DNA from: Halostella salina
Lineage (GTDB): Archaea > Halobacteriota > Halobacteria > Halobacteriales > Natronoarchaeaceae
Reading direction: 5' to 3'
DNA length: 64,000 bases
Assembly: GCF_003675855.1 (NCBI RefSeq)
Contig: NZ_RCIH01000003.1
Location: forward strand, 248,001 to 312,000
Part shown: positions 4,579 through 36,699 of the stretch, one piece after another
How the letters are laid out: the number at the start of each line of letters is the position of its first letter
Position numbering within the stretch: position 1 is the first letter of the stretch
Position numbers and translations under genes: made by a program
The notes under the pieces: generated by a model
The model's database searches: none
Told to the model about the DNA's origin: nothing
The model's input: the letters and a program-made list of their open reading frames with translations, nothing else

Positions 4579-7025
4579 CAAGCAAAACAGAGAAGTTCCG
4601 TGGCCTGTTCCTGGCCGCTCTCATGGTCTTCTCCGTGTTCGCAGGCTCCGTCGCCTTCGCTGGTTCCGCCGCCGCGGCGAACCAGGCCGATGGTGACGAG
4701 GAGCTGACGAGCAACGGACAGACTTTCTGGGAGGGTCAGCAGGTCTACGTAGACTTTACTAACACACCAGACATTGCACAGGGCGAAGACTATCAGATCC
4801 GCGACGCTGACGACGGTACCCTCGAGCGCGAGCGTACCGCCGACTCGTCCGGTAACGGGTTCCTCATCGACACGTCGGGGCTCGACGGTCAGTACAACCT
4901 GACCGACTCGACTGGCACCGTCCAGTACACGTTCGAGGTCGCCCCGCAGGACTTCAACGTCACGGCTGACGACGGTCGGGTCGTCAACGACGGCTCCACC
5001 GAGGAGTTCGACATCGACTCCCGCCGTGGCACGTTCTTCGTGAACGCCTCCGCGGACGGCCTGAACGCGTCTGAAGTCTTCGCGGACGAGAACGTCGACA
5101 CCGTCTACGGTGACACGGTCAAGCTCGAGGTCTCCGGTGGCGGCTCGCTCGTAGGTAACTTCAGCGGCGTCTCCGCTGACACCTACGATCTGGAATTCAG
5201 CGTGAACGACACTGACGCCGAAGACACGGCGTCGGTCAACGTGACCAGCGCGGGCGAGGCTGACACCAGCTTCCAGAACCGCCTCATCACCGAGCAGATC
5301 GGTGACAACGCGCAGTTCACGGTCGAAATGGACAACACCGATACGGCTTCGGTCGTCATCGGTGACATCCAGAGCTCCGGCTACCAGGCCAACCTGACCG
5401 TCGTGGACGGTGACGACGACGGCCAGGCCACGGTCCAGTTCAACACGTTCCAGGCTGGCAGCGGCAACGGTGACGCGATCAGCGTCGTCAGCGAGGACGA
5501 CGAGCTGACCGACGCAGACGACTCCAACCTGGGCGAGCTTCTGGCCACGACCACGTACGAGGTCAACGTGGCTGCCGGTGACCAGAGCTACGACGCCAGC
5601 TCCGACGCGCGCGCCTCGCTGAACCTGCAGAGTCGCTCGACCAACGACATGACCATCGGTACGGTGCCGGGCACTGCGAGCCCGAGCGAGTTCTCCGACG
5701 TGACGGAGGCCGTCACCGAGGATAGCTCCATCGTCGAGGGCGACTGGATCGTCCACGAGGTCGACGCAACCGGTCTGTCCGGCGCGATCGCCGCACAGAA
5801 CGGTGCTGACACGACCGAGAAGTTCTTCAACCTGCTCGGCACCGGCGCCGGGGAGGCCAACGTCACGCTCACGGCCACGCAGGACAACCCTGCCCCGAAC
5901 CGTGACGCCAAGTCGCTCGCGCTGAACGACAGCAACACCGTCGTCTTCGCTGACGGTGCCAACGACACGTACTACGTCGTCGTTGACAGCGCGAACGTCG
6001 AAAACGCAGACGGCACCGCGTTCACCCCGGACGACGGCAGCTACACTACGGATCTGACCATCGCCGAGGAGTCGCCCCTCGCCAGCGGTGACGAGGACGA
6101 GGTGGTCAGCGGGTCCTACGAGCTCTCTGAGCTCGAGGCAACCGTGACGCCGCCGGAGGTCTCGGCGGAGTCCGGTCAGACCATCGAGGGCACTTCGACT
6201 GCGGCCGCCGGCACCGAGCTGACCATCCGCGTCGAAAGCACATCCGACGTCAGCCCGCCGTTCATCCTGGAGGACCAGGTGACGGTTCAGGAAGACGGCA
6301 CGTGGTCCGCTGACTTCGACTTCAGCGAAGACGCGTCCGCCGGTGACAACTTCACCGTTCAGGTGATCGGCGACACCGAGCTCCTGGACGAACCCCAGAC
6401 GGGCACGGTCGGCGACGCGCCTGACGCCCAGGTCACCTTCAGCGGTGAGATCAGCGACGACGGGTCGACTGTCACGGTCGACGAGGCCTTCCTGCCCGAG
6501 GGCGGCTTCGTCACCATCCACGACAGCACCCTCGTCAGCGAGGACGACCCGCTCGGTAGCGTGCTCGGTACGTCCGAGTACCTCGAGTCCGGCCAGCACA
6601 CGGACGTGCAGGTCGAACTCGACAGCGCCCTCACCGAGGATCAGGAGCTCATCGCGATGCCGCACATGGACTCCAACGACAACGAGGAGTACGACTTCGT
6701 CTCCTCCGAGGGTGACGCTGACGGTCCGTACACCGCTGACGGGAACGCCGTGACGGCCAGCGCGGACGTCACGCTCCCGACTGACGAGACGACGACCACG
6801 ACGACTACCACGACGACTACGACGACCGAAGAAACCACGACGACCACGACGACCGAGGAAACCACCACCACCACCACCACCGACGACCCCGGCACGACGC
6901 CGAGCGACGGTGACGGTGACGGTGACGGTGACTCCGACTCCGGCGGTCAGCCCGGCTTCGGCATCAGCATCGCCATCGTGGCGCTGCTCGCCGCCGCCAT
7001 GCTGGCCCTGCGTCGTCAGGACTAA
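4575..7025 (+). CDS. csg: S-layer (cell surface) glycoprotein with PGF-CTERM anchor
   Basis: This 816-residue protein forms the cell-surface lattice. Residues 1-34 are a Sec signal peptide (basic start, hydrophobic core LFLAALMVFSVFAG, cleavage near GSAAAA-NQ). The long acidic ectodomain has about a dozen N-X-S/T glycosylation sequons, for example near residues 108, 128, 157, 164 and 195. Residues about 735-775 are almost entirely Thr with EE spacers, a likely O-glycosylated stalk. The end has PGFG, a hydrophobic segment and RRQD, the PGF-CTERM signal handled by archaeosortase ArtA, which replaces the segment with lipid. Ile/Leu/Val-poor, Asp-rich composition fits haloarchaeal S-layers. The gene has its own promoter, leader and terminator. 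Confidence 0.95.
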   Translation: MTSKTEKFRGLFLAALMVFSVFAGSVAFAGSAAAANQADGDEELTSNGQTFWEGQQVYVDFTNTPDIAQGEDYQIRDADDGTLERERTADSSGNGFLIDTSGLDGQYNLTDSTGTVQYTFEVAPQDFNVTADDGRVVNDGSTEEFDIDSRRGTFFVNASADGLNASEVFADENVDTVYGDTVKLEVSGGGSLVGNFSGVSADTYDLEFSVNDTDAEDTASVNVTSAGEADTSFQNRLITEQIGDNAQFTVEMDNTDTASVVIGDIQSSGYQANLTVVDGDDDGQATVQFNTFQAGSGNGDAISVVSEDDELTDADDSNLGELLATTTYEVNVAAGDQSYDASSDARASLNLQSRSTNDMTIGTVPGTASPSEFSDVTEAVTEDSSIVEGDWIVHEVDATGLSGAIAAQNGADTTEKFFNLLGTGAGEANVTLTATQDNPAPNRDAKSLALNDSNTVVFADGANDTYYVVVDSANVENADGTAFTPDDGSYTTDLTIAEESPLASGDEDEVVSGSYELSELEATVTPPEVSAESGQTIEGTSTAAAGTELTIRVESTSDVSPPFILEDQVTVQEDGTWSADFDFSEDASAGDNFTVQVIGDTELLDEPQTGTVGDAPDAQVTFSGEISDDGSTVTVDEAFLPEGGFVTIHDSTLVSEDDPLGSVLGTSEYLESGQHTDVQVELDSALTEDQELIAMPHMDSNDNEEYDFVSSEGDADGPYTADGNAVTASADVTLPTDETTTTTTTTTTTTTEETTTTTTTEETTTTTTTDDPGTTPSDGDGDGDGDSDSGGQPGFGISIAIVALLAAAMLALRRQD

Positions 7026-29360: not shown

Positions 29361-30922
29361 CAGATCGGCTTCAGCGTGTCGTCGCCGGACTCGTAGCACT
29401 GTCCGCCCATCAGTGCCTCCTGGATCGCGTCCTCGACGGCGCCCGGGTCCGCGCCGGTCCGGTCGACGACCGCGGCGACCAGCTCCTCGCGGGGCGCGCC
29501 GTCGCCGTCGTCCAGGTCCTCCATCGCGTCCATCACGACGGTGTCGAGCGGCGCGTCCGCGTCGGCCGGCCCGGCGTCGTCCTCGTCGTCGCCCGCAGCA
29601 GCGGCGTCCGCGTCCCCGTCGCTCGCCGACCCCGCTTCGCTCTCCGAGTCGTCCCCGTCGTCGGTGGCGTCGGTCGCGCCCGCCTCCCCTTCGACTGGCG
29701 GATCGACGTCGATGCCGGCCTCGCCGGGTTCGTCGACCTCGGTTCCGGTCGAGAACTCGGTGCCGTACTCGGCCTCGATCTCCTCGCGTTCCTCCTCGTC
29801 GAACTCGTACATCTCGTCGCCCGCGCCGGGCATCTCTCCCTCGGTCGCGCCGTCGGAGGCTTCGCTCGCACGCTCGCCCTCGTCCGTGGACGCCGAGGTG
29901 TCCATCCCGGGTTCGAAGTCGCCGGGACCGTCGTCGCCGGCGTCCGCTTCGGCGTCGGCGTCGACCGACGTAGTGTCCGGTTCGGCGGTCGTCGTGACCG
30001 TCTTGCCGCCCGTGTCTGCGGACGTTTCGGCCGCCTCGTCGCCCGGTTCTGCGGTCGGCTCGGCCGTCTCGGCGTCGGTGTCCGCAGTTGCAGGCTCGTC
30101 GGACGTCGCCTCGTTGGCCGCGGCGTCCGACGCCGTCGTCGCCGAGTCGTCCCCCGTGGACGCCGCTGCCGTCGCTTCGCCGACCTGCGAACGTGTGAAC
30201 GGGACGCCCGCCTCGTCGCCGCCCTCGCCCGGTTCGAGCGACAGCGGGCCGACATCGTCGGTGTCTATCTCGCCGGCGACGACGCGGGCGGCGTCCACCG
30301 CCACTGCGTGGAGTTCCCCGAGGTACTCGCGGGTCGTGCCGTAGTGGTCGAGCGCGACGGCGGTCCCCTGTGCCAGCGCGGGGTCGACGCCGCGGTCCGC
30401 GAGGGCCGCTTCGAGTTCGTCGCCCGTTGCGCCGAGTTCCAGCGCGTCGGCGAACGTGCCGACGCGCTCCAGCGTCTGCTCGGCGGTGGCGACGACCCAG
30501 CGGTCACGCGTGTCCGCGCCGACCTCGTTGATGCTCTCGGGGCGGATCGAGGTGAACACGCGGTCCGAGTCGTCCGGCTGGAAGGTGTTTGCCTTCCCCG
30601 TCACCGCGACGAACGCCGGCGGGTCCAGTCGCTCCAGCGCCGCCATCTCGTCTGGCTGGTACTGGCCGGCGTACACGACGAACGCGCCGGTCGGGTCGAC
30701 CACGCGGGCACGCAGCACGTCCTCGCTGACCTGCTCTATCTCCGTGAGCACGCCCACCGCGAACAGGCGGTTGACGCGCGCGCCGGTCGGCGTCACGACG
30801 TAGTTCGGGGCGCGCTCCTCGTCGCTCTCGGAGAACTCCACCTCGGCGTCCTCGTACTCGGCGGCGAACAGGCGGTGGGCGACCTCGCGGGTGCCCGGCC
30901 CGCCGTCGTCGCTCTCGCTCAT
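29360..30922 (-). CDS. rpap1: RPA-associated protein
   Basis: A 520-residue protein. Residues about 1-135 form an OB-fold (VVTPTGARVNRLFAVGVLTE, RARVVDPTGAFVVYAGQYQP) and about 140-230 a helical region. The next ~200 residues are acidic, Asp/Ala/Thr-rich low complexity, followed by a C-terminal helical domain (about 465-520) ending GGQCYESGDDTLKPI. This is the RPA-associated protein encoded with RPA in haloarchaea and presumed to bind with it to single-stranded DNA. The acidic linker is unusually long by eye. It overlaps the RPA gene by 4 bases (30919-30922). Confidence 0.85.
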   Translation of the reverse strand: MSESDDGGPGTREVAHRLFAAEYEDAEVEFSESDEERAPNYVVTPTGARVNRLFAVGVLTEIEQVSEDVLRARVVDPTGAFVVYAGQYQPDEMAALERLDPPAFVAVTGKANTFQPDDSDRVFTSIRPESINEVGADTRDRWVVATAEQTLERVGTFADALELGATGDELEAALADRGVDPALAQGTAVALDHYGTTREYLGELHAVAVDAARVVAGEIDTDDVGPLSLEPGEGGDEAGVPFTRSQVGEATAAASTGDDSATTASDAAANEATSDEPATADTDAETAEPTAEPGDEAAETSADTGGKTVTTTAEPDTTSVDADAEADAGDDGPGDFEPGMDTSASTDEGERASEASDGATEGEMPGAGDEMYEFDEEEREEIEAEYGTEFSTGTEVDEPGEAGIDVDPPVEGEAGATDATDDGDDSESEAGSASDGDADAAAAGDDEDDAGPADADAPLDTVVMDAMEDLDDGDGAPREELVAAVVDRTGADPGAVEDAIQEALMGGQCYESGDDTLKPI

Positions 30923-32193
30923 GCTTCCACCTCCTCGACGAGGGCGCTCGCACGCTCGGCCGGGTCGTCGTCGGTCCGGTCGAACTCGGCGGCGTCCAAG
31001 TTCGCGCCGTACTCGTCGACCGAGAGGTGGCCGCGGACGCGGTACTCGCGCCCCACGATGTTCTCACGGATCGTGTCCGCGACGACCTCCTGGTCCATCG
31101 CGTCGCGGGCCTGCTCGCGGGCGTCCTCGACGCCGCCGCCGTACACGTCCTCGGTGAGTTCCTCGTCCAGCACCGCGGTGAGCGCGCCAGTGCCGTCATC
31201 GACGATGGCCTTGACGCGCAGGTCGTCCTCGCCGTCGACCTCGCCGTGGGTGCGACACTGGCCCTTCTGGATGACGCGCCCGCACTCGGGGCAGCGCTGG
31301 ACCAGTCCGGAGCCGTCACGCACCGCGATGACGTTGCCGACGACCGCCACGTCGTACACGCCGCCCGTGGCGATGGCCTCGCCGACGCCCATCTCCGGCG
31401 CGGCGTCGCTCAGGTCGACCGCGCGGTCGAGCGCGTCGACTGTCGAGAACTCGGAGACGTTCACCGACGGCACGCCGCGGTACTCCCTGACGTAGACGTT
31501 CTCGACCCGGAGGTCCGCGCCCTCCTCGATCTCGGGATGTGGGTCCCAGTCGGTGAACGGGAGCCGCGCGGTCTCGTCGCCGAGCACGCCCGAGAGGATC
31601 TCCGTCTCGCCGTCGCGGCCGTCGATGGTGCGGCGCTCGACCTCGACGACGCGGGCCTCGACGTTCACGCCGCGGTCGCCCACGTCCACGTCGATCAGGT
31701 CGGCGTCGCCGCCGACCTCGTACTCGACGGCCAGGTCCTCGTCCGCCCGGGCGACGGTCGTGCTCTCGCCGACGTTCAGCTCGGGTTCGCCCTCCCACTC
31801 GCGGACGCCGGCGTTGCCGAGCGTGACGGTGTCGCCCGGCTCGAAGCTCACGTCGGTCCAGGCGGTGTAGTCGATGACGCCGCTCTCGTCGGCGAGGCGG
31901 CCCTCGTAGATGACGTTGTCCTCGCCCTGGTAGCGGATCGAGCGCTTGCCCTTTGTCAGCACCGTCGCGGTGACCGTGACGTTGCCGTCGTCGGTTTCCA
32001 CGTCGGCGATGTCGGTCTGACTCGGCGCGCCGCCACCGCCGTCGCTCCCGTCGCCGTACTTCCGGCGGAGGCTCTGCTTCGCCTCGTCCATCGGCACGCT
32101 GTACGACACCAGGTTCTCCAGGTCCTCTTTGACCTCCTCTTTGTCGACACCGAGGTCGGAGGCGAGATCCTCGGCATGGTCGTCTAAACTCAT
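30919..32193 (-). CDS. rpa1: Replication protein A, large subunit
   Basis: A 424-residue single-stranded DNA-binding protein. After a UBA-like N-terminal helix region (1-50, LGVDKEEVKEDLENLVSY) come three OB folds, near 65-170, 170-275 and 290-400. A zinc finger CPECGRVIQKGQCRTHG interrupts the third. Such RPA proteins protect DNA in replication and repair. The start at 32193 follows a TATA-like ctaaaaacc element about 26 bases upstream (32217-32225, minus strand), consistent with a leaderless operon promoter. First gene of rpa1-rpap1-rpe. Confidence 0.93.
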   Translation of the reverse strand: MSLDDHAEDLASDLGVDKEEVKEDLENLVSYSVPMDEAKQSLRRKYGDGSDGGGGAPSQTDIADVETDDGNVTVTATVLTKGKRSIRYQGEDNVIYEGRLADESGVIDYTAWTDVSFEPGDTVTLGNAGVREWEGEPELNVGESTTVARADEDLAVEYEVGGDADLIDVDVGDRGVNVEARVVEVERRTIDGRDGETEILSGVLGDETARLPFTDWDPHPEIEEGADLRVENVYVREYRGVPSVNVSEFSTVDALDRAVDLSDAAPEMGVGEAIATGGVYDVAVVGNVIAVRDGSGLVQRCPECGRVIQKGQCRTHGEVDGEDDLRVKAIVDDGTGALTAVLDEELTEDVYGGGVEDAREQARDAMDQEVVADTIRENIVGREYRVRGHLSVDEYGANLDAAEFDRTDDDPAERASALVEEVEA

Positions 32194-32610
32194 CAGCGGT
32201 ACTTCGGCGGGGTTCCCTAAAAACCATTCCGTGGGTTCGGCCCGTGGAGCGTGCGCTCGCACTCAGCGCCCGGACTCAGTGTCACCGAACCGCACTCGTT
32301 TTTTCGCACACATCCGGGCGATATTTTATCCACCTTATAAACATCTATTGTTTATTTGGACTCATATACTATTTCTAATATAACTGGTGGCGTGGTCTGT
32401 CTATTCAAGATCGAAGTTTCTCCCGTCTCGAGGAAGCACGATTGTACTCATGTCGATCATCTTCGGTACGGCTCGGCAATGCGCCACAGAACTTTGGTCT
32501 CTTAGATTTGCACTAGCTAAAATTGAAACTGAAGTAACTAATATAGAATACAAATTATTTTTAAAATTAGCTAATTTTATATAGTATAGATATGTTATTT
32601 GGGATGAGTT
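32194..32610. other. AT-rich intergenic region at the edge of a low-GC islet
   Basis: No protein gene is seen in these 417 bases. From about 32320 the sequence becomes markedly AT-rich, unlike the flanks. It holds the promoter of the rpa operon on the minus strand (near 32217-32225) and, at its right end, the TATA box of the following plus-strand gene. It marks the left border of a region of different base composition. Confidence 0.6.
32576..32583 (+). promoter_or_regulatory. TATA box of the Tat-exported islet gene
   Basis: TTTATATA ends 28 bases before the ATG at 32611, the distance expected for leaderless transcription. Confidence 0.6.
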
Positions 32611-33306
32611 ATGAGGAAATCAAACGACTTCACTCGACGCAGAATTTTAGCATCAAGTACAGGTATTGTCGGCATTAGTGCACTATGCGGTGGCTCCGTG
32701 GCAGCCGACTCTGCTCGAAAGTCCCAAGACACGGAGAATGGACTCAGTATCAAAGAACTATCAAACGCGATTACGATCGCAAATGGAAAAGCGAAGGTGA
32801 AGGGGTGAGCTCGTTCCTCAAAGAAAGCCGAAGTTTTAGTGAAGACAGAAAGTGGGGAATCAATTACATATACCGCCATGGATTTGGCGGAAGATATCAA
32901 CCGAGCGGTTGAAATGGGCTTTATGATCGTCCGCGACGGCCCGAGCGGACTTCAGTTCGACCTGACGGCGAGGGGTCAACAACTCATCAGCGGAGTTCAG
33001 GACACACCTGTCAAAGTATCCGATCATTGTGACGGTAAAAACAAGATCGAGGGGGACACTATCTACCTCGATGACGACTCAGTAGACGAGTTAGTGATGG
33101 GAGGGACTCTGAGCGGCGGTGTGTTTACAGTCGCTGGTACCATCGTCGGATTGCTTACAACTGCTACGCTTGGACCGATCGTTTTCGCTGCAGCTGGCGT
33201 CCTCATTGGTGTGGGTGCAACTGGAGTCAACCTGGAGAACGATGGTTGCGGCATCAAAATCGACACGAACTCGAATTCACTATCTTCACAGCATTGCGAC
33301 TGTTGA
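32611..33306 (+). pseudogene. Tat-exported hydrophobic protein, interrupted by an in-frame TGA
   Basis: One frame of 231 codons is interrupted only by TGA at 32806-32808. The first 65 residues carry a Tat signal (NDFTRRRILASSTGIVGISA). After the stop the same frame continues ARSSKKAEVLVKTES and ends in a layout seen in haloarchaeal secreted peptides: DHCDGKNKIEGDTIYLDDDS, a Gly/Ala/Val double-hydrophobic stretch (about 165-205), DGCGIKI and a Cys-rich end SSQHCDC. Restart at GTG 32839 would give a 155-residue protein without a signal. A pore-forming or halocin-like role is speculation; a pseudogene is the simplest reading. Confidence 0.65.
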
Positions 33307-33413
33307 ACGGCCAACGACAAGGAAGACTTCGTTCCGTTACCGTACGGAACCCGTGGGACTGACCCCGAATGTCAAATTATTTTATGGTATAATAATAAAA
33401 ACAATTATGCCGG

Positions 33414-34343
33414 ATGATACGATTCATACAAGTAAGGTCGAAACCGATGGGAACGGCTGATACAAACAGGCTTCCGGCGCTGGAAGTTCATGACACCCGG
33501 TTCGGCATGCTCGCCGGAAGCTACACGGCGTCGCTGCTTGCGCCTGTTATCACGCTCCTCATGGTACAGTACTTTCAGGTTCGTAGTTGGCCGCTCGCGA
33601 TCGGCCTTCTCGGGGCCACCGGTGCTGCCATCTACTCCGTGGTCATCTTGCTGCTCGCCGACAGCGGCGAAATGCTCAGGTGGCTCAACGAAGGATGGTC
33701 ATCTTGGATTCTTCCACTCCTCGGGTTCGCGCCACTCACCGCCTACGATTTCTTTGTCATCGAGTTCTTTGCCTATTCGCTCACTGAATTCAAGTCCGGA
33801 GCGGCGGCTACCTTGGTCGGTACGGTCGGTTTCATCCTCGCCATTGCGGCCTGTTTACTGGGTGAAATCACGGTGCGAGAAGCTCGAAACCGGGTTGCTT
33901 CGTTGGCAATCGCAGATGAAGACGTATTGGTCGAATGGACGGCTGCAAGGCCAATGGAGGACAGAGTCAAAGTACAATCGGTTGTGGTCCTCGTCGGGTT
34001 CGTGCTCGTCGGCTTGCTCGCGGCCAAGTATTCAGTGTTGACAACAGTGTATACACTACTGTTCGTCGCAGCGACTGCGTTCGCTGTAAAATCGAACTTC
34101 GCTGAACGGGTCTATCGGCTAACTCCGTCGGGGCTGGAGCAATCTCGGGAATCTACACTTTTCAAACACCGACAATTCATCGCGTGGTCACAGTTCGATG
34201 CGTTCAGCATGACCGACAAGGCGTTTATCCTCCACCGACAGTCACTTCGCCCAGACATCCGGTTCTCTCGAAAAGACGCCCGCTCGAATGAAGAAACTAT
34301 CAGGGATGCGTTAAGAACGCATCTCGACCATCGCGATTCGTAG
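33414..34343 (+). CDS. Islet membrane protein with PH-like C-terminal domain
   Basis: A 309-residue protein (or 298 from the Met at 33447) with about six membrane segments between residues 30 and 225. The C-terminal 75 residues, beginning ERVYRLTPSGLEQSRES, are soluble and have the strand pattern of a bacterial PH/YcxB-like domain. A TATA-like run TATAATAAT (33388-33396) sits 18-26 bases upstream of the ATG at 33414, suggesting leaderless transcription from there. It follows the broken Tat-exported gene and shares its low GC, so it may be its accessory or immunity partner; that is inference. Confidence 0.7.
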   Translation: MIRFIQVRSKPMGTADTNRLPALEVHDTRFGMLAGSYTASLLAPVITLLMVQYFQVRSWPLAIGLLGATGAAIYSVVILLLADSGEMLRWLNEGWSSWILPLLGFAPLTAYDFFVIEFFAYSLTEFKSGAAATLVGTVGFILAIAACLLGEITVREARNRVASLAIADEDVLVEWTAARPMEDRVKVQSVVVLVGFVLVGLLAAKYSVLTTVYTLLFVAATAFAVKSNFAERVYRLTPSGLEQSRESTLFKHRQFIAWSQFDAFSMTDKAFILHRQSLRPDIRFSRKDARSNEETIRDALRTHLDHRDS

Positions 34344-34559
34344 TACTCTCGAACCTGTCATCGAATTGTATCTATGTTTGCTCTCACACAACAACTGCTC
34401 TCGGCAGCGAAACTACCATTATCGGTCATTCGGCAAGCGTGCGACGAAGTGGGCAATTGACTACCTCTATAGCCCGCGTTACCGGTCCAAGTCGGTTATT
34501 AAACACGACAGCTATCGATCGGAGCAACGGTGCCTCGTAATTCGACCGCGCGTTCGCGG
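34344..34559. other. Intergenic region, right border of the low-GC islet
   Basis: No gene recognised in these 216 bases. Composition returns to high GC at about 34540. No terminal inverted repeats or tRNA-derived attachment sequence was seen, so the mode of entry of the islet is unknown. Confidence 0.5.
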
Positions 34560-35423
34560 TCAGTACCCCGACTCCAGCGTGCCGCCGAGCGTCTCGAACT
34601 CCAGCGCGTCGAACTCCTCGGGCGCGGTGTCGGTTTCGGCGTAGGCGTACAGCGCCGTCTTGATGACGCCCCAGAGCGCGCTGTGGACGAGGAACCCGAG
34701 CACCGCGACGGTCCCGGCGAGGATTCCCCCGACAGCGAATCCGCCGAGCGACGGGACGAGCACGGCGGGGACAGCGAAGGCGACGAGGACGGCGAGCACC
34801 GTGACGAGACCGGTGATCAGCCCGATCCCGAACCCTGCGCCGATCGACTCGCCCCACGTCTGCTTGAACGTGTTCACGCTCTCGCCGAACATCCCGGTGA
34901 CGGAGGTGTCCTCGAAGACGATGACCGGGACGACGAAGAACGTCGCTATCGACCAGCCGGCCGAGAACACGACCGAGACGACCTTCGCGGCGATGGAGCT
35001 CCGGCTCTCCAGCCACTGGATGAGTATCCCGACGGCCGCCGCGATGAGCGCCCAGACCGCGATGATCCCGGCCTTGTTCCCGGTCGCCTTCAGGGACCGG
35101 ACGACCCTCGGCTCCTTCCCGGCGAAGCTCTCGCCGACGGCGTGGACGAGCGCCGCGTTGGCGAAGGTGGCGATGAAGGTCGTACCGAAGTAGACCACGA
35201 ACAATCCGACCCACAGGCCGGCCTCGCCGAGCTGCGCCAGCCCGTACGTCGTCTCGAACAGGAACACCGGGCCGAGCAATGCGACCAGAAACGCGATCGA
35301 GAGGACGCCGCTGACGAGCGGGAACACGAGCAGCTTCGGATGGTTTCGGAGGACGCGGAGCCCGCCGACCGTGAGGGTCAGGCCGAGCCGGATCCGCTGG
35401 ATGAACGATCTGATTCCGAACAT
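34560..35423 (-). CDS. Membrane protein, DUF6159-like
   Basis: A 287-residue protein with six or so membrane segments. It begins with the amphipathic FIQRIRLGLTLTVGGLRVLR, then LLVFPLVSGVLSIAFLVALL, and contains FGTTFIATFANAALVHAVGE, FFVVPVIVFEDTSVTGMF and ESVNTFKQTWGESI. This layout matches the DUF6159 family of archaeal and bacterial membrane proteins of unknown function. A TATA-like ttttataac (minus, about 35450-35458) is some 30 bases upstream of the ATG. Confidence 0.82.
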   Translation of the reverse strand: MFGIRSFIQRIRLGLTLTVGGLRVLRNHPKLLVFPLVSGVLSIAFLVALLGPVFLFETTYGLAQLGEAGLWVGLFVVYFGTTFIATFANAALVHAVGESFAGKEPRVVRSLKATGNKAGIIAVWALIAAAVGILIQWLESRSSIAAKVVSVVFSAGWSIATFFVVPVIVFEDTSVTGMFGESVNTFKQTWGESIGAGFGIGLITGLVTVLAVLVAFAVPAVLVPSLGGFAVGGILAGTVAVLGFLVHSALWGVIKTALYAYAETDTAPEEFDALEFETLGGTLESGY

Positions 35424-36568: not shown

Positions 36569-36699
36569 CGATCAGTCGTCGGCAAAACAGAAGCCGCGAC
36601 CGCAGTCTCGCGATGAAACGCTCACCCGATCAGTCGTCGGCAAAACAGAAGCCGCGACCGCAGCCTCGCGATGAAACGCTCAGCCGATCAGTCGTCGGC
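36569..36699. repeat. 58-bp tandem repeat copying the end of the reductase gene
   Basis: Units start at 36569, 36627 and 36685 (exact 58-base period). The first two are full and differ at two positions; the third is the first 15 bases of the unit and is the real stop region of the reductase gene (its TGA and last codons on the minus strand). Each full unit contains, on the minus strand, GCTGCGGTCGCGGC, able to form a 5-bp hairpin, followed by ttctgtttt. The repeat therefore duplicates the gene end with its terminator-like hairpin. Confidence 0.85.

What the first reader, a model, noticed from the sequence alone, without database searches (positions are those of the whole stretch)
32320..34540. 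Low-GC islet with a broken Tat-exported peptide gene and a membrane protein
A two-gene insert between the RPA operon and the DUF6159-like gene has distinctly lower GC and its own promoters. The first gene encodes a Tat-exported protein with a double-hydrophobic Gly/Ala segment and Cys-rich end, the style of haloarchaeal secreted toxins. The second is a multi-pass membrane protein with a PH-like tail, as an immunity or processing partner might be. This could be an undescribed secreted-peptide/immunity cassette; here the peptide gene has been inactivated.
Basis: partly seen in the sequence, partly recalled or inferred. Interest (0 to 1): 0.7.

Follow-up and report, generated by a model that had tools for sequence, protein, structure and literature searches.

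The report
Haloarchaeal secreted-peptide and immunity islet
A small foreign-looking DNA insert in a salt-loving archaeon carries a broken gene for an exported, membrane-seeking protein next to a membrane-protein gene; relatives show the same two-gene layout again and again, as expected for an undescribed family of secreted toxins each kept beside its own protection protein, although nobody has tested this.

Summary
A 2.3-kb insert (about 32238-34539; GC 0.43-0.57 against about 0.70) lies between the RPA gene and a DUF6159 gene and is absent from four congeners; one sibling shows the empty site. Gene 1 (32611-33306) is a Tat-exported protein with a Gly/Ala hydrophobic region, an N-D-G-C-G motif and a C-D-C end, broken by one in-frame stop. 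Gene 2 (33447-34343) has six predicted TM helices and a PH-like tail.

In six genomes gene 1 is broken, truncated or gone while gene 2 stays open.

Gene 1 founds a superfamily (about 29 genes in 392 haloarchaeal genomes). Members with other companions form low-GC two-gene islets too: 18 of 21 have a small multi-TM gene within 450 bp, against 2-6% of random anchors. The companions fall into several unrelated families and change orientation. Four genomes make the hydrophobic part as a separate, translationally coupled protein.

Best reading: a secreted antagonistic protein plus dedicated membrane immunity, an undescribed halocin-like type; in the window it is immunity-only. Activity is inferred, not shown. 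HalC8 and geobacillin-26 models do not match.

The parts
32238..34539 (.). Low-GC islet, absent from four congeneric genomes
   Evidence: GC profile; empty site in sibling G127 and no islet in G324, G327, G052
32611..33306 (+). Gene 1: Tat-exported hydrophobic protein, pseudogene by one in-frame stop
   Evidence: ORF list and reading; full-length profile match with one TGA inside, E 1.5e-74; tblastn to the intact homologue across the stop
32611..32706 (+). Tat signal region of gene 1 (RRR motif followed by a hydrophobic stretch)
   Evidence: direct reading; RR invariant or nearly so in the superfamily alignment
32806..32808 (+). In-frame TGA at codon 66; homologues have a sense codon here
33085..33255 (+). 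Gly/Ala-rich hydrophobic region followed by N-D-G-C-G
   Evidence: superfamily alignments; N, G, G of the motif and a later Q invariant
33447..34343 (+). Gene 2: 298-aa protein, six predicted TM helices plus PH-like tail; candidate immunity protein
   Evidence: start chosen by homologue length
34104..34334 (+). PH-like tail of gene 2 (residues 220-296)
   Evidence: AlphaFold2 model, Foldseek to FERM/PH-superfold lobes; one homologue hits Pfam bPH_7 at E 0.0057

Best explanation
The islet is a mobile two-gene antagonism cassette. Gene 1 encodes a precursor that is folded in the cytoplasm and exported by Tat (shown: Tat-type signal; inferred: export). Its N-terminal domain masks a hydrophobic C-terminal module (two hydrophobic stretches, N-x-G-C-G, conserved terminal S-Q or S-Q-H-C-D-C). 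Outside, that module inserts into the membrane of sensitive relatives (inferred). Gene 2 is the dedicated membrane protein that protects the producer (inferred from pairing, partner swapping and asymmetric decay). In the window the secreted gene has been lost recently to a stop codon, leaving an immunity-only locus.
For: Pairing: every islet-type gene 2 in the window's subclade has an intact or decayed gene 1 beside it, except G376 where gene 1 is gone; intact pairs in five genomes. Partner swapping: of 21 superfamily loci with other companions, 18 have a small ORF of two or more TM within 450 bp, against 2.1% (same GC limit) or 6.1% (no GC filter) of random anchors. Companions form several families (4-TM in G010, G318, G086, G059, more weakly G075; 3-TM in G165, G103, G308) that lie downstream, convergent or divergent. 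Asymmetric decay: gene 1 broken, truncated or missing in six genomes while gene 2 stays open; the reverse is rare (G090). Modularity: in G106, G192, G086 and G059 the Tat part and the hydrophobic part are separate ORFs joined by an SD-like GGAGG and a TAATG stop-start. Recent break: 41% amino-acid identity to G005 on both sides of the stop, no extra stops. PH-domain membrane proteins take part in immunity or transport of leaderless bacteriocins (PMC11580447).
Against: No antagonism or protection has been measured for any member. No sequence homology to a proven halocin or bacteriocin was found. Selection on gene 2 looks relaxed in some peptide-less genomes (dN/dS 0.5-0.9 in comparisons with G376), so retention for protection is not proven. 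Gene 2 has a core paralogue, often beside radB, whose role is unlikely to be immunity to this protein. Eight further gene 2 homologues (Haloarcula, Haloferax and others) have no trace of gene 1. The split loci lack a signal on the C-terminal part, so its export must be assumed to be in complex with the Tat part.
Confidence: 0.6

Rival explanations
1. The pair is an envelope signalling or sensing system: the Tat-exported protein is a secreted signal or surface ligand and the membrane protein is its receptor.
For: Conserved pairing with a membrane protein is equally expected; gene 2 is large with a PH-like tail that could bind lipids or partners; a core paralogue exists.
Against: Companions are unrelated proteins as small as 60 aa with only two TM helices, unlikely as receptors in general; loss of the secreted gene while the partner stays is odd for a receptor without a ligand, though eavesdropping is possible.
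Confidence: 0.17
2. Gene 2 is a processing, transport or anchoring partner of the exported protein, not immunity; PH-tailed proteins of leaderless bacteriocin clusters are reported to act in transport.
For: PH-domain proteins are involved in transport of enterocin DD14, and disruption of an aureocin A53 cluster gene of this kind abolished production (PMC11580447, PMC7332713).
Against: Gene 1 brings its own Tat signal; gene 2 persists without gene 1 in several genomes.
Confidence: 0.13
3. The islet is decaying junk of no present function: a pseudogene next to a membrane gene on its way out.
For: Stop in gene 1; dN/dS of gene 2 rises in orphan genomes.
Against: True at most for the window; intact pairs and the wider superfamily are conserved, and gene 2 of the window is open across 298 codons with dN/dS about 0.2-0.4 against relatives, though with near-saturated dS.
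Confidence: 0.1

Closest known systems
Halocin C8 / HalI (ProC8, TIGR04449)
   Same: Haloarchaeal Tat-exported precursor of about 230-290 aa with a hydrophobic, Cys-bearing C-terminus; occurs in several of the same genomes.
   Different: TIGR04449 does not hit any superfamily locus; profile comparison aligns only the Tat signal. HalC8 carries immunity inside the same precursor (PMC11509114); here a separate membrane gene sits beside it. Few Cys instead of the Cys-rich HalC8 domain.
Geobacillin 26 / alicyclobacillin 24 (class III bacteriocins, NF035925)
   Same: Secreted proteins of about 240 aa with a C-terminal transmembrane helix and low mutual identity; membrane-associated killing reported for Ali24 (PMC13176240).
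   Different: No superfamily member reaches the cut-off; the model's weak hits in 392 genomes are scattered over many unrelated places. Sec signal in Bacillota, Tat here.
PH-domain membrane proteins of leaderless bacteriocin clusters (bPH_2/YdbT-like; enterocin DD14, aureocin A53)
   Same: Multi-TM protein with PH-like domain encoded beside a membrane-active peptide; implicated in immunity or transport (PMC11580447, PMC7332713).
   Different: Pfam PH families are not met (best bPH_7 E 0.0057 in one homologue); here six TM helices are followed by one PH-like tail; archaeal.
Halocin H4 and HapP (HFX_0892) protease-activated precursors
   Same: Haloarchaeal secreted precursors with antagonistic activity (PMC12893001).
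   Different: No homology tested or claimed; HapP acts through its N-terminus; no dedicated membrane partner is described in the parts read.

Membership tests
Halocin C8 family | halocin C8-like domain (TIGR04449, cut-off 24 bits) | tested here: not met
   25 superfamily-bearing genomes searched; all hits lie at other coordinates
Halocin C8 family | Tat-type signal on a larger precursor | tested here: met
   RR motif and hydrophobic stretch in full-length members
Halocin C8 family | sequence relationship of the precursor body | tested here: not met
   hhalign of A3 with two HalC8 precursors aligns only 34 columns, the Tat signal
Geobacillin-26 family | NF035925 above 40 bits | tested here: not met
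   best superfamily E 0.055, below cut-off; no hit over cut-off in 392 genomes
Geobacillin-26 family | secreted protein of about 240 aa with C-terminal hydrophobic helix | tested here: met
   about 220-285 aa, C-terminal hydrophobic region; architecture only
Secreted toxin with dedicated immunity protein (functional class) | physical linkage of secreted gene and membrane partner beyond chance | tested here: met
Secreted toxin with dedicated immunity protein (functional class) | killing by the secreted product and protection by the partner | not testable with these tools
   needs bench assay
Bacterial PH-domain (bPH) membrane proteins | PH superfold domain next to TM helices | tested here: met
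   AF2 model of residues 220-296 and Foldseek matches to FERM lobes
Bacterial PH-domain (bPH) membrane proteins | Pfam bPH match above gathering score | tested here: not met
   window protein no match; one homologue bPH_7 E 0.0057
Virus- or provirus-borne gene | occurrence in viral contigs or phage records | tested here: not met
   no relatives of gene 2 in viral contigs; no gene 1 relative in phage records; the profile scan of gene 1 in viral contigs could not run

The most novel reading that the evidence does not exclude
A widespread, undescribed haloarchaeal superfamily of Tat-exported, membrane-active bacteriocins, each linked to one of several unrelated membrane immunity proteins; in one branch the toxic module is a separate polypeptide, translationally coupled to the Tat-bearing part and exported with it as a folded complex.
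Probability: 0.45. Interest if true: 0.75.

Novelty: new variant of a known kind. Interest (0 to 1): 0.6.

Why it matters
Few halocins are known at sequence level and halocin C8 is the best described (PMC11509114). A family found in about 6% of the haloarchaeal genomes sampled, with its partner genes already mapped, would give a set of directly testable toxin and immunity pairs, explain part of the antagonism seen among haloarchaea, and offer a clean case of immunity-only loci. The split version would be an unusual use of Tat co-export.

Tried and rejected
Geobacillin-26 homology: weak hits in two members (best E 0.055) did not hold up, since the model hits scattered places across 392 genomes without passing its cut-off. 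Duplication of the DUF6159 3' end at the islet borders (attachment-site idea): similarity of the two borders no better than shuffles, dropped. Frameshift in the split loci G106, G192, G086 and G059: rejected, because the junction is an overlapping stop-start with an SD-like motif; G318 looks truly frameshifted. Structure of gene 1: AF2 from four sequences gave mean pLDDT 38, unusable, so no fold search was made. A winged-helix resemblance of the N-terminal domain (AspA E 0.07) and a mads_3 hit (E 4e-4) were not followed. dN/dS of gene 1 of the window against relatives: dS saturated. Plasmid and phage searches added only Natrinema plasmids. The 2019 mBio survey of archaeal antimicrobial peptides and toxins (Makarova and co-workers, known to me from memory) is not held, so I could not check whether this family is among its candidates.

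Full report
WHAT IS THERE. The window carries a 2.3-kb low-GC islet between the RPA gene (30919-32193, minus) and a DUF6159 gene (34560-35423, minus; Pfam E 5.3e-24). GC falls to 0.43-0.57 inside and is about 0.70 outside. A sibling genome of the same genus, G127, has RPA upstream DNA joined almost directly to sequence homologous from window 34540 on, and three further congeners lack the islet as well. No target-site repeat could be shown.

GENE 1. ATG 32611 opens a frame that starts with a Tat-type signal and runs to 33306, interrupted only by TGA at 32806-32808. The A3 profile matches it end to end with that one stop inside (E 1.5e-74; the window sequence is itself one row of A3). Independently, the intact homologue of G005 aligns across the stop (E 2.6e-49). 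The parts before and after the stop are equally similar to it (41% amino-acid identity each), and no second stop has arisen. The gene was therefore probably inactivated recently. A sequencing error in the draft assembly cannot be excluded.

GENE 2. The homologues fix the start at ATG 33447, giving 298 aa. A model from ten sequences shows six long hydrophobic helices followed by a PH-like domain at residues 220-296 (the N-terminal half of the model has low confidence). Foldseek matches that tail to FERM-domain lobes, the PH superfold (best E 2.3e-3, about 80 residues). No Pfam or NCBIfam family takes the window protein.

THE PAIR RECURS. In 392 haloarchaeal genomes, gene 1 and gene 2 were searched separately and their places compared. 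Intact pairs: G005, G329 (Natronorubrum thiooxidans), G321, G308 (Natrarchaeobius chitinivorans) and G113 (Halomicrobium katesii, gene order reversed). Damaged pairs: the window; G302 (Natrinema versiforme plasmid, gene 1 without its Tat end); G230 and G351 (Natrialba taiwanensis and N. aegyptia), where only the 3' end of gene 1 is left, split at the same site by extra DNA of different length; G143, where only the last bases remain; and G376, where nothing remains. Gene 2 is open in all of them. In the gene 2 tree these loci form one clade with G308 (99/94), next to a clade of peptide-less homologues from Haloarcula, Haloferax and others that also holds the intact G113 pair. dN/dS between gene 2 copies is 0.28-0.30 between genomes with intact pairs (G005 or G329 against G321) and rises to 0.5-0.9 in comparisons with G376. 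Purifying selection therefore seems weaker once gene 1 is lost; I do not claim that retention for protection is proven.

A CORE PARALOGUE. Weaker gene 2 homologues lie in high-GC DNA, in many cases beside a RadB-like gene, and form a group apart from the islet clade (100/99 branch; the RadB name rests on reading the neighbouring protein). The islet protein thus belongs to a broader family with a housekeeping-like branch.

THE SUPERFAMILY. Remote members found with the first search align with gene 1 over the whole length: RR signal, a G-K-N-D- or C-N-like motif, a D-D/S-D turn, a Gly/Ala hydrophobic region, N-x-G-C-G-V and a terminal S-Q or P-Q. A profile finds about 29 genes in 25-26 of 392 genomes; the other hits of that search cover mostly the Tat signal. 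Twenty-one loci outside the window's subfamily were examined. Almost all have a small multi-TM gene beside the exported protein: 18 of 21 within 450 bp, against 34 of 1619 random anchors with the same GC limit and 94 of 1536 without it. One further locus (G103) has a clear homologue of the G165 partner just beyond that limit. Random anchors drawn from the same loci control for genome and region but not perfectly for the low GC of the islets, so the recurrence of homologous partners is the firmer evidence: a 4-TM family in G010, G318, G086 and G059 (E down to 1e-28, weaker in G075) and a 3-TM family in G165, G103 and G308 (E 1e-16 to 1e-49). The 3-TM family lies downstream, convergent or divergent relative to its partner. 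Association that survives changes of orientation points to a shared function.

SPLIT VERSIONS. In G106, G192, G086 and G059 the Tat-bearing part and the hydrophobic part are separate ORFs. The first ends with a stop that overlaps the ATG of the second (TAATG), just downstream of an SD-like GGAGG stretch. In G059 the second ORF has its own stop. The hydrophobic part is therefore a separable module. If the second ORF is exported, it probably leaves in complex with the Tat part; this is inference.

HOW IT PROBABLY WORKS. Shown: signal type, domain order, linkage, partner swapping, decay, modularity. Inferred: export as a folded precursor, release of the hydrophobic module, membrane damage in relatives, protection by the neighbouring membrane protein. 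Unrelated small membrane proteins taking the same place beside a rapidly diverging secreted protein is the usual signature of toxin and immunity. PH-domain membrane proteins with a role in immunity or transport are reported for leaderless bacteriocins (PMC11580447, PMC7332713).

WHAT IT IS NOT. HalC8: its domain model misses every superfamily locus although HalC8-type genes occur elsewhere in some of the same genomes, and the profiles share only the Tat signal. Geobacillin 26: same size class and architecture (PMC13176240) but no sequence support. No viral or phage relatives were found in the searches that could run. No defence-system model explains it (one weak hit of the Natronorubrum homologue only).

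VERDICT. The finding is real and larger than first reported. I rate it as a new variant of a known kind, with two limits: no activity data, and one likely relevant survey that could not be read.

Noticed in passing
L148 4271-4974, L149 4131-4825, L170 4724-5472 (also G192, L123): Superfamily genes split into two ORFs with a TAATG stop-start overlap and an SD-like GGAGG motif, in four genomes: a bicistronic form of the exported protein.
   Followed up: partly
L196-L209, for example L200 5758-6642: A core, high-GC membrane protein distantly related to gene 2, in many loci adjacent to a RadB-like gene; function unknown.
   Followed up: partly
window 34560-35423 and L187 about 5668-5752: The DUF6159 gene beside the islet is missing from four congeners; G127 keeps only its 3' end, so the spot is variable in the genus.
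   Followed up: partly
window 36569-36699: Tandem repeat of a 58-bp unit, 2.3 copies, 97% matches, just upstream of the thioredoxin-reductase-like gene's 3' end.
   Followed up: no
L153 6618-7119 and L157 4719-5710: Extra DNA of different length at the same point within the gene 1 remnant in Natrialba taiwanensis and N. aegyptia, as if a mobile element had entered and been reshaped.
   Followed up: no
A3 profile positions 65-123: The N-terminal domain of the exported protein weakly resembles a winged helix (AspA hits, E 0.07), odd for an exported protein.
   Followed up: no
G090, G033, G106, G191, G318: Several genomes with superfamily genes also carry multiple halocin C8-type genes.
   Followed up: no
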